Assembly: GCF_000300005.1 (NCBI RefSeq)
Contig: NC_018691.1
Span: 1,922,001-1,986,000, forward strand
Length of the DNA stretch: 64,000 bases
Direction: 5' to 3'
From: Alloalcanivorax dieselolei B5
GTDB lineage: Bacteria > Pseudomonadota > Gammaproteobacteria > Pseudomonadales > Alcanivoracaceae
The notes under the pieces are model-generated. The model saw nothing but the letters and a program-made list of their open reading frames with translations. It searched no databases and was not told the origin of the DNA. This document shows positions 11,546-13,827 of the stretch, in pieces (positions within the stretch are counted from its first letter, which is position 1; each line of letters opens with the position of its first letter). The position numbers were made by a program, and so were the translations under genes.

Positions 11546-11995
11546 ATGTCCGATCAACCCCAGGACAATAACCAGGATAAAAAAGACGAACGCGGCCCTT
11601 TGCGCACCCTCACCGGTGCCTCCCGGGATCTGCGCAAGTACACCCATCAGATCTGGCTGGCGGGGCTTGGCGCTTTTGCCCGTGCCGAGGAAGAGGGCAG
11701 TGGTTTCTTCGATGCGCTGGTGGAAGCCGGCCGCCAGGTGGAAAAGCACACCCGTGAGAAGGCCCCGCGAGTGGAGGACATCAAGGAACGGGTGCGTCAT
11801 CACACCGGCGAGACCATGGACCGCATGGAGAAAGCCTTTGATGACCGTCTGAGCAAGGCGCTGTCGCGGCTGGGTATCCCCAACAAGCGGGAAGTGGAGG
11901 CGTTGCAACGCCGGGTCCAGGAGTTGACCGATGCCCTGGAACGGATGGAAGACGAGGAGCCGGAGTCCGAATCCAAACCCCGGGACCCGGAATAA
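11546..11995 (+). CDS. Phasin family protein (polyhydroxyalkanoate granule-associated)
   Basis: 149 residues. The N-terminal half matches the PhaI/PhaF-type phasin domain (RKYTHQIWLAGLGAFARAEEEGSGFFDALVEAG). The rest is a long charged amphipathic helix with heptad leucines (EVEALQRRVQELTDALERME) for oligomerisation and an acidic end. Phasins of this family coat PHA granules and control their size. The Lys/Ala/Pro-rich DNA-binding tail of PhaF is absent, so it is closer to PhaI. The ATG at 11546 has GGGAG upstream. No PHA synthase gene lies in the window. In a wax-ester-forming organism it might coat other lipid bodies, which is inference. Confidence 0.82.
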   Translation: MSDQPQDNNQDKKDERGPLRTLTGASRDLRKYTHQIWLAGLGAFARAEEEGSGFFDALVEAGRQVEKHTREKAPRVEDIKERVRHHTGETMDRMEKAFDDRLSKALSRLGIPNKREVEALQRRVQELTDALERMEDEEPESESKPRDPE

Positions 11996-12010
11996 ATCGT
12001 GCTCCGTTTC

Positions 12011-12036
12011 CGTGGGATGCTGCCTTGGCAGCGAAT
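12011..12036. repeat. Single divergent REP-like unit
   Basis: A unit beginning CGTGGGATGC and ending GCGAAT with an internal GCTGCC/GGCAGC hairpin lies just after the phasin stop. It is a weaker relative of the REP copies elsewhere and may help terminate phasin transcription. Confidence 0.55.
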
Positions 12037-12107
12037 CGACGTGTAAATCGGCTGCCCCACGACTCTGGGACAGCCGCGCCCTTGCTTTTCCCCCGCCTAT
12101 TGCCAGC

Positions 12108-12629
12108 TTATTCACAAAGTTATCCACAGATTCGTCCGGCGTGCTCCACAGGGGCGCATCGGACTATGAAAAATAACGCTATTCATCCACAGGAATGACC
12201 TGGAACAGGGCAGAAGGCCAAAATCCGGACCTTGGCGTCTGTTCACTATTGACATCGACAAATCGGCCCGAAACTGTGCACAGCACCCGGTGGGATGTGA
12301 AAGTCGGTAACAAAACTTCCCAAAAGGTCTAAATTGCTTAAAGTTGACGCCATAACTAACTGAAAAATAAAGATTTTCTTTAATTGGTCAAAAAAACGTC
12401 AAATTGCGCAACCTCCCCTTATTAAGCTGTCATGGGTTGTTTTCCTCACTTTCTCAACAGGGTTATCCACAGGAACTGTGGAAAACCGGCATGGTCGTTC
12501 CAGGACCCCGATTTTCCCGCCGTTGGGACGGTCAAAATCACACCAACGAACAGGTACCGGCGTACTGTCTGGGATGTGAGTCTTCTCGCACCGGTTATGC
12601 ACCGGCTTATCCACAGAAGCTGTGGGTAA
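12108..12629. other. DnaA-box cluster with AT-rich stretch (origin-like)
   Basis: Consensus DnaA boxes (TTATNCACA): TTATTCACA 12108-12116, TTATCCACA 12120-12128, 12463-12471 and 12607-12615. One-mismatch boxes are at 12183-12191 (TCATCCACA), 12477-12485 and 12621-12629 (reverse strand). The last two complete 23-bp palindromes: TTATCCACAG-GAA-CTGTGGAAAA (12463-12485) and TTATCCACAG-AAG-CTGTGGGTAA (12607-12629). Between the clusters, about 12340-12435 is strongly AT-rich for this genome and could be an unwinding element. There is no credible gene from 11996 to 12638. It could be the chromosomal origin, a DnaA-titrating or reactivating site, or a relic. dnaA, dnaN, gyrB, rpmH and mnmG are absent from the window. 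Confidence 0.7.
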
Positions 12630-12638
12630 CTCAGGCAA

Positions 12639-12833
12639 ATGAGTATGTTCCCAATCCTCCAGCGTCAATTGGTGCCGCGGTTTGAACAGCACCTCGCCGG
12701 CGTTGTTGTAGCCCATGTCCAGACGGCCATAGTGATCCAGTGTTTTGTCGATAAAGGCGCGCACCTGCTGGTGAAAAAGGGTGATCCCCACCTTGCCCTC
12801 CGGCAAAGCGGGGATAAATGGGGCCAATCGCAT
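12639..12833 (-). pseudogene. Remnant of a short-chain dehydrogenase gene
   Basis: From ATG 12833 the frame contains RAFIDKTLDHYGRLDMGYNNAGEV and LTLEDWEH, which match the middle of SDR enzymes (the NNAG strand and the following helix). The N-terminal TGxxxGxG cofactor motif is missing, and similarity ends near 12639, followed by about 80 unrelated codons running into the DnaA-box region. Both ends of the gene are therefore lost. It is divergent from a LysR regulator, the usual layout of a LysR gene with its target, so the target has probably decayed. Confidence 0.7.
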
Positions 12834-12882
12834 GGTATTTTTGACTCCGAGTCATTAATGCATGCTTGGCAAGGCGGTCTTC

Positions 12883-13827
12883 ATGTCCCTGGAAACCATG
12901 GAAATCAGTGTCTTCGTCAGTGTCGTCAAACTGGGCAGTTTTGCCCGTGCCGCGCAGGAGCACGGCATGACCCCTTCCGGCGTCAGCCGCGTGGTATCCC
13001 GCCTGGAGGAGCGGTTGGCGGTGCGCCTGTTGCAGCGGTCCACCCGGCGGTTGTCGCTGACCGAATCCGGTGCCGTGTTGTTCCGGCGCGGCCAGCGTGT
13101 TCTGCAAGAACTGCAACAGACGGAAAGCGAGGTTACCGCCGCCAGCCGGCATCCAAACGGCGTTATTCGTGTCAACGCACCGGTGGTGTTCGGGCGGCAG
13201 CACATCGTGCCGTTGCTGAAACCGCTGCGTGATCGCTATCCGGAGCTGTCGATTGAATTGGAATTGAGTGATCGCTTCATCGATCTCATAGACGGCGGCG
13301 TGGACCTGGCCATTCGCATCGGCGCACTGGAGGATTCCCGTCTGGTGGCCCGCCGGCTGTGCGCCAACCGACGGTTGCTGGTGGCCAGCCCGGCCTATAT
13401 TCGCCGCTATGGCGTGCCCCGTGAGCCGAAGGAACTGAGCGATCACCAATGCCTGATCTTCACCGCGCTGGAGAAGCCGCGCCATTGGCGGCTGCAGGGG
13501 CCCGAGGGCACGGTGTCGGTACCGGTGGCGGGGCCCGTGGTCTGTAATAACGGCGAGGTGCTGACCGAGGCCGCCAAGGCCGGCTTGGGCATCGCCATGG
13601 GGGTGACGTTCTCGATCGCCGATGCGTTGCTCTCCGGTGATCTGGTGCGGGTCTTGCCGGAGTACGAATTCGAGCCCTCGGCGGTGCATGCGGTTTACCC
13701 GTCGGCGCGGCAACTGTCGCGCAAGGTGCGGGCGGTGGTGGACTTCCTGGCGGAATCCTTGCCGGGGCCGCCGTCCTGGGATCTGGCATTGCGCGGCAAG
13801 GTGGTGGGGTTCGAGCCGACGCCCTGA
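12883..13827 (+). CDS. LysR-family transcriptional regulator
   Basis: 314 residues. N-terminal winged helix-turn-helix (METMEISVFV-like start, GSFARAAQEHGMTPSGVSRVVSRLEERLAVRLLQRSTRRLSLTESG region) followed by a LysR substrate-binding domain beginning GVIRVNAPVVFGRQHIVPLL. It resembles the CrgA/DhcR-like subgroup. The ATG at 12883 is preferred (AAGG upstream), with 12862 and 12898 as alternatives. Divergent from a decayed SDR gene, so its former target may be lost. Effector unknown. Confidence 0.85.
   Translation: MSLETMEISVFVSVVKLGSFARAAQEHGMTPSGVSRVVSRLEERLAVRLLQRSTRRLSLTESGAVLFRRGQRVLQELQQTESEVTAASRHPNGVIRVNAPVVFGRQHIVPLLKPLRDRYPELSIELELSDRFIDLIDGGVDLAIRIGALEDSRLVARRLCANRRLLVASPAYIRRYGVPREPKELSDHQCLIFTALEKPRHWRLQGPEGTVSVPVAGPVVCNNGEVLTEAAKAGLGIAMGVTFSIADALLSGDLVRVLPEYEFEPSAVHAVYPSARQLSRKVRAVVDFLAESLPGPPSWDLALRGKVVGFEPTP

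What the first reader, a model, noticed from the sequence alone, without database searches (positions are those of the whole stretch)
12108..12629. DnaA-box cluster with paired palindromes and AT-rich core, far from dnaA
Seen: four exact TTATNCACA boxes and three one-mismatch boxes within 522 bp of a GC-rich genome, four near one end (12108-12191, including two boxes 3 bp apart in tandem) and two pairs as inverted 23-bp palindromes with a 3-bp centre, separated by an AT-rich stretch (about 12340-12435). By chance one exact box is expected only about once per many tens of kb. Known: this is how gammaproteobacterial oriC looks, and E. coli datA and DARS sites also cluster DnaA boxes. Inference: this is either oriC detached from dnaA (as in E. 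coli) or a DnaA-control site in a region whose gene order resembles the Pseudomonas topA-lexA region. The palindromic box pairing is not a standard datA or DARS layout.
Basis: partly seen in the sequence, partly recalled or inferred. Interest (0 to 1): 0.75.

Follow-up and report, generated by a model that had tools for sequence, protein, structure and literature searches.

The report
Twin-core DnaA-reactivation site (DARS)
This stretch is most likely a control site that recharges the replication-starting protein DnaA, built like the DARS sites of E. coli but with two cores, and the same fixed blueprint turns up in many other proteobacteria.

Summary
The DnaA-box cluster is real and the only one of its kind among the genome's exact boxes. 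It is not oriC: dnaA lies 1.93 Mb away, and the sampled GC skew changes sign at dnaA and between 2.26 and 2.50 Mb. The paired palindromes are two copies of the DARS core: box I, a 5-bp gap, inverted box II, a 3-bp gap, box III. Box starts lie at 0/+14/+26, as in E. coli DARS1 and DARS2. The AT-rich stretch holds an IHF-like site 85 bp from box III, with at most one mismatch in all 11 aligned relatives (two mismatches in the window itself). A second unlinked locus on the other replichore has the same core and IHF spacing. In a class-wide search that did not require boxes I or III, 104 of 131 listed sites had the IHF site 83-87 bp away. Most of these had box III, and most of those fetched had box I at the DARS position and another DnaA box about 188 bp from box II. 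I file the locus as a DARS2-type element, a twin-core variant of a known kind. Function is inferred, not shown.

The parts
12595..12629 (-). DARS core C: box I (12621-12629), inverted box II (12607-12615), box III (12595-12603)
   Evidence: Offsets 0/+14/+26 as in E. coli DARS1 and DARS2; 2 mismatches to the core pattern
12451..12485 (-). DARS core B: box I (12477-12485), inverted box II (12463-12471), box III (12451-12459, weak: TTCTCAACA)
   Evidence: Same offsets; 2 mismatches. Box II invariant in the 12 aligned loci (window plus 11 relatives), box I 8 of 9 positions invariant
12353..12365 (-). IHF-like site, 85 bp from core B box III
   Evidence: WATCAANNNNTTR: 2 mismatches here, at most 1 mismatch at distance 85 in 11 of 11 aligned relatives
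12376..12403 (.). Conserved A/T tract and CGTCAAA element between core B and the IHF site; protein unknown
   Evidence: CGTCAAA at -66 from box II in 12 of 12 loci
12306..12312 (.). Invariant GGTAACA block, role unknown
   Evidence: Invariant in 12 of 12 in the alignment; a plain text search gave -157 from box II in 9 of 12 and -176 in 3, where it appears to have met an upstream copy
12275..12283 (-). Weak distal DnaA box (palindromic TGTGCACAG), 188 bp from core B box II
   Evidence: Same distance in 12 of 12; a box at 187-191 recurs at other DARS-type loci
12242..12254 (.). Invariant 13-bp block TTCACTATTGACA, role unknown
   Evidence: -221 from core B box II in 12 of 12
12108..12128 (-). 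Tandem box pair (a box II-III half-core without box I)
   Evidence: TTATCCACA 12120-12128 invariant in 12 of 12; 342-343 bp from core B box II in 11 of 12, 332 in one
12183..12191 (+). One-mismatch box TCATCCACA, not conserved, probably incidental
   Evidence: Listed in L004 and L005 only; no box of at most 1 mismatch at this place in the other site-1 loci

Best explanation
The locus is a DARS2-type DnaA-reactivating sequence. ADP-DnaA binds boxes II and III in tandem and box I head to head with II. The opposed AAA+ domains on I and II loosen ADP; apo-DnaA leaves and reloads with ATP, which raises the ATP-DnaA pool before the next initiation at oriC beside dnaA. IHF bound 85 bp from box III bends the DNA and brings the distal box (+188) and the tandem pair (+343) to the core on a fixed helical face. 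Shown here: box geometry, spacing conservation, genome position, presence of DnaA, Hda, IHF and Fis homologues. Inferred from E. coli biochemistry: nucleotide exchange, IHF control, effect on timing. The second core (C) would add capacity; this is a guess.
For: Core geometry identical to DARS1 and DARS2, and absent at up to 4 mismatches from the E. coli datA locus and from the 20-kb stretches on either side of dnaA in this genome; none in 200 Markov shuffles of the window. Published: spacing is the same in DARS1 and DARS2, box I is opposed, and head-to-head boxes are functionally essential (PMC5742627 and PMC10380432, passages). Core pattern at no more than 2 mismatches in 184 of 293 genomes of the order, reversed control 0. 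IHF-like site at 85 in 11 of 11 relatives at site 1, at 84-86 in 7 of 7 site-2 loci. Class-wide search: IHF at 83-87 in 104 of 131 listed sites; box I at -14 in 60 of 73 (next best offset 9 of 73), distal box at 184-193 in 55 of 73 against 0 of 73 in a control interval. DnaA keeps D269, R285, L290. IHF-beta, Fis and Hda homologues present.
Against: No biochemical or in vivo test. In this species box III of core B, the IHF site and the distal box each carry 2 mismatches, weaker than in most sister species (and reading). One of 12 same-genus genomes (G001) has no DNA match to site 1, though it has a site-2-like core. Core C has no IHF site at 85. No Fis site that can be told apart from the DnaA boxes, although Fis is required at E. 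coli DARS2. E. coli DARS2 has its IHF-like sites at 58 and 74 bp, not 85, and the box nearest +188 there (+197) points the other way.
Confidence: 0.85

Rival explanations
1. Titration or inactivation site (datA-like): the cluster soaks up DnaA or promotes ATP hydrolysis rather than reactivation.
For: High-affinity boxes plus an IHF-like site are also datA ingredients (PMC10380432, passages); titration by box clusters is argued for E. coli (PMC12371093, passages).
Against: The head-to-head DARS core is absent from the E. coli datA locus at up to 4 mismatches; mere titration does not need 5-bp, 3-bp and 85-bp spacings kept across the class.
Confidence: 0.08
2. Detached or second replication origin (true oriC, or a dormant one like the second P. 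aeruginosa element).
For: Boxes, palindromes and an AT-rich core look origin-like; two autonomously replicating elements are reported for P. aeruginosa (PMC4403523, passages).
Against: Skew samples put the origin at dnaA and the terminus between 2.26 and 2.50 Mb with no sign change near 1.93 Mb; weak boxes and AT-rich DNA precede dnaA; DARS-type matches often occur more than once per genome.
Confidence: 0.03
3. DnaA- or IHF-dependent promoter region for a neighbouring gene (phasin, LysR regulator, acyl-CoA synthetase).
For: Invariant TTCACTATTGACA contains a -35-like TTGACA; two further conserved blocks are unexplained.
Against: The same layout sits beside different genes at site 2 and recurs across many families; no good -10 follows by eye (no promoter scan was run); no Rfam family reaches its cut-off in 11900-12900.
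Confidence: 0.04

Closest known systems
E. coli DARS2 (ygdT-mutH region, 2.97 Mb)
   Same: Core offsets 0/14/26; IHF-like sites on the box III side; intergenic; between oriC and ter; a perfect box in the orientation of box II further out (+316) with a weak tandem box
   Different: IHF-like sites (my scan) at 58 and 74 bp instead of 85; the box at +197 is in the opposite orientation; Fis sites known in E. coli, none clear here; the window has two full cores 144 bp apart
E. coli DARS1 (bioD-uvrB)
   Same: Core offsets 0/14/26, 2 mismatches to the same pattern
   Different: No IHF-like site with at most 1 mismatch within 220 bp; single core
E. coli datA
   Same: DnaA boxes plus an IHF site outside oriC (PMC10380432, passages)
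   Different: No core of this geometry in the locus at up to 4 mismatches
oriC of this genome (in front of dnaA)
   Same: DnaA boxes and AT-rich DNA
   Different: Only one exact box among weak ones; no DARS core

Membership tests
DARS | Three boxes: I head to head with II, III tandem to II, spacing as in DARS1 and DARS2 | tested here: met
   description in PMC5742627 passages
DARS | Intergenic locus away from oriC, between oriC and terminus | tested here: met
   1.934 Mb of 4.928 Mb, 0.79 of the right replichore; between phasin and LysR genes
DARS2 type | IHF site on the box III side at fixed distance | tested here: met
   85 bp in 11 of 11 aligned relatives at no more than 1 mismatch; 2 mismatches in the window; E. 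coli values are 58 and 74
DARS2 type | Fis sites FBS2-3 | tested here: inconclusive
   Two Fis-like places at 1 mismatch or better in 10 of 12 rows, each on both strands (count 4, against a mean of 0.23 and a maximum of 2 in 60 column shuffles), but both overlap conserved DnaA boxes
DARS | DnaA residues needed for ADP release (D269, L290) and R285 | tested here: met
   Conserved in the aligned DnaA, 298 of 454 aligned residues identical
DARS | Stimulates ADP release from ADP-DnaA and initiation in vivo | not testable with these tools
   needs bench work
oriC | Lies at the GC-skew origin | tested here: not met
   Sign change at dnaA, not here
datA | Boxes with an IHF site that promote DnaA-ATP hydrolysis | tested here: inconclusive
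   Boxes lie on both sides of the IHF-like site, but the head-to-head core is a DARS trait; hydrolysis not testable

The most novel reading that the evidence does not exclude
The E. coli DARS2 site is an unusual form of a very old proteobacterial device whose standard blueprint is core - 85 bp - IHF - DnaA box at +188. Its helical phasing is kept across the class and into other classes of the phylum, and Alloalcanivorax carries a twin-core, 520-bp enlarged form on the right replichore plus a standard form on the left one.
Probability: 0.45. Interest if true: 0.75.

Novelty: new variant of a known kind. Interest (0 to 1): 0.6.

Why it matters
To my knowledge DnaA reactivation has been worked out almost only in E. 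coli. A 2014 paper says the DARS2 core is conserved specifically among gammaproteobacteria related to E. coli (PMC4245941, section 26), while a 2023 review says similar sequences occur in many proteobacteria (PMC10380432, passages). A simple sequence blueprint that finds such sites in unrelated families makes the DnaA cycle testable in Pseudomonadales and beyond, and shows which distances the machine cannot change.

Tried and rejected
Detached oriC: rejected on skew samples and position. A wholly coincidental cluster: rejected. An RNA element: Rfam gave one match far below its cut-off, downstream (Magnesium-II, E 0.26, 12779-12870). Fis site in the A-tract block: it has only part of the consensus, not claimed. 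Pho-box or OmpR-like direct repeats in the same block (GTCAAA twice, 11 bp apart): considered, no evidence. The secondary distance group at 72-76 bp is weak: 8 of 131 sites, only 5 with box III, and 3 of the 7 fetched have box I, so I do not claim that all of it is the E. coli form. Pseudomonas aeruginosa oriC2: I could not learn its sequence or place, so whether it is a DARS is open. Fujimitsu 2009, the DARS discovery paper, is not held, so what it says about conservation is unseen. Literature searches listed no paper I recognised as describing a DARS in Pseudomonas or Alcanivorax; they cover open-licence papers only and I saw listings, not the papers, except the passages and sections cited.

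Full report
What was checked. The window is bases 1,922,001-1,986,000 of a single 4,928,223-base contig. The size matches what I recall for Alcanivorax dieselolei B5; that name comes from no call. The named genomes holding one conserved block of the site are all Alloalcanivorax or Alcanivorax (10 stretches). Over the genome there are 38 exact boxes against 33 for the reversed control, and outside this cluster the closest two are about 4.4 kb apart.

Not an origin. dnaA lies at 115-1488. In twenty 20-kb samples plus the window, GC skew is positive in every sample from 0 to 2.26 Mb and negative in every one from 2.50 Mb to the dnaA end. The AT-rich DNA in front of dnaA carries one exact and several one-mismatch boxes, as expected for oriC. 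The cluster sits at 0.79 of the right replichore.

The DARS core. In MG1655, DARS1 has boxes at 1608(+), 1622(-), 1634(-) of L055 and DARS2 at 636(+), 650(-), 662(-) of L054: offsets 0/14/26 in both. Read on the minus strand the window has the same twice: 12621/12607/12595 (core C) and 12477/12463/12451 (core B). Against the pattern TTWTNCACA-5-TGTGNAWAA-3-TGTGNAWAA the window cores have 2 mismatches each, DARS1 2 and DARS2 3. The datA locus and the 20-kb stretches on either side of dnaA in this genome have no match at up to 4; 200 Markov shuffles of the window gave none. Reviews state that the spacing is the same in DARS1 and DARS2, that box I is opposed to II and III, and that the head-to-head pair is essential (PMC5742627 and PMC10380432, passages).

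Conservation. Of 12 same-genus genomes searched with the site's DNA, 11 match and one (G001) does not. The window and those 11 loci were aligned; some are near-identical species, so they are not independent cases. Box positions are invariant at 53 of 72 columns against 113 of 484 outside boxes. Distances from core B box II are locked: TTCACTATTGACA -221, TGTGCACAG -188 and CGTCAAA -66 in 12 of 12; the left tandem pair -342/-343 in 11 of 12 and -332 in one; core B to core C 144 in four and 153-155 in eight. An IHF consensus with at most 1 mismatch starts 85 bp from box III in all 11 relatives; the window copy has 2 mismatches. In three loci of other genera (L097, L100, L101) the site lies between a DUF445 gene and an acyl-CoA synthetase gene as in this genus, with a phasin-like gene plain in L100 (judged from the protein starts, only the window's own proteins were scanned). 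There one core was found in each; IHF at 85-86 in two, none at 1 mismatch in L097. In the window about 5 kb of other genes lie between site and synthetase.

A second locus. The core pattern at up to 3 mismatches occurs four times in the genome: the two window cores, 2,577,208 and 3,581,829; control none. The 3.58-Mb site, on the other replichore, has a perfect IHF consensus at 86 bp. Across seven loci of this kind the first IHF site is at 84-86 in seven and a second at 115-116 in six. In nine same-genus genomes, site-2-like cores appear in six, including G001; G002, G004 and G012 show only the two site-1 cores. In G010 and G015 the site lies near serA-like genes, with dapA-like or purC-, cysZ- and SMC-like genes close by; in the window genome it has cytochrome-bd and metallo-lactamase-fold neighbours (gene names are my reading of the Pfam domains). 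The 2.58-Mb site has no IHF-like site of at most 1 mismatch within 220 bp, but similar cores recur in G006 and G008.

How general. The core at no more than 2 mismatches is in 184 of 293 genomes of the order, with the reversed control at zero in the rows shown. In the truncated list of exact head-to-head pairs with gaps 0-20, 58 of 94 distinct listed places have gap 5, 11 have gap 17 (the box I to III distance), 7 have gap 8 and no other gap more than 5. In 34 cores from loci L060-L088, 27 IHF hits with at most 1 mismatch lie at 80-89 bp on the + strand; some of these loci repeat site 1. The least biased test required only an exact box II and an exact IHF consensus 70-100 bp from where box III would end. 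It gave 131 sites in 101 of 274 genomes of the class, reversed control zero; so 173 of 274 had none at that strictness. Of the 131, 104 lie at 83-87 bp, and 98 of those 104 have box III (at most 2 mismatches) at +12, none at +11 or +13. Of 80 sites fetched (of 95), 73 are in the 82-88 group: box I (at most 2 mismatches) at -14 in 60 of 73, a DnaA box in the orientation of box II at 184-193 in 55 of 73, control interval 0 of 73. In a phylum sample the same pattern matched 38 of 160 genomes. Of the 120 genomes outside the class 17 matched, 14 with a distance of 82-88 bp, 11 of these with box III at 2 mismatches or better; box I was not examined there.

Position. Twenty-two cores in 16 genomes with a single listed contig lie at 0.32-0.95 of a replichore from dnaA (genome sizes rounded, list truncated, the window genome's sites at 2.58 and 3.58 Mb not in this count). 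I left out multi-contig genomes; two of them (G080, G242) would give about 0.2 by hand.

Mechanism. The anatomy fits the E. coli DARS2 scheme: head-to-head ADP-DnaA on I and II, support from III, IHF bending. DnaA keeps the residues named for ADP release, and IHF-beta, Fis and Hda homologues are present. DiaA was not searched for. What the second core, the distal tandem pair and three invariant non-box blocks do is unknown.

Against. The window copy is weaker than most of its relatives at three elements (box III of core B, IHF site, distal box). Fis-like matches exceed shuffles but cannot be separated from the DnaA boxes they overlap. The IHF distance differs from the + strand IHF-like site of E. 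coli DARS2 by 11 bp (85 against 74), about one helical turn. Function is untested.

Noticed in passing
G000:C1 3581829-3581962 (L089, L190): Second DARS-type locus on the left replichore with a perfect IHF consensus at 86 bp; the more standard form.
   Followed up: yes
G000:C1 2577208-2577242 (L090): Third core-like match (3 mismatches) beside ParA-like and P450 genes, no IHF-like site; similar cores in G006 and G008.
   Followed up: partly
L054 952-986 (E. coli DARS2 region): A degenerate second core (952+ by reading, 966- and 978-) 316 bp from the DARS2 core, in the same orientation.
   Followed up: no
window 12242-12254, 12306-12312, 12376-12403: Three conserved non-DnaA blocks at site 1, one with GTCAAA twice 11 bp apart; binding proteins unknown.
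   Followed up: partly
window 12010-12075: REP-like repeat after the phasin gene, matched at many places in this and sister genomes.
   Followed up: no
window 12640-12833: Short-chain-dehydrogenase-like fragment (by eye); relatives G006-G008 carry about 425 extra bases between the two matched parts of the query here.
   Followed up: no
G555:C1; G391: Genomes with five and four listed box II-IHF sites respectively, at 84-86 bp.
   Followed up: no
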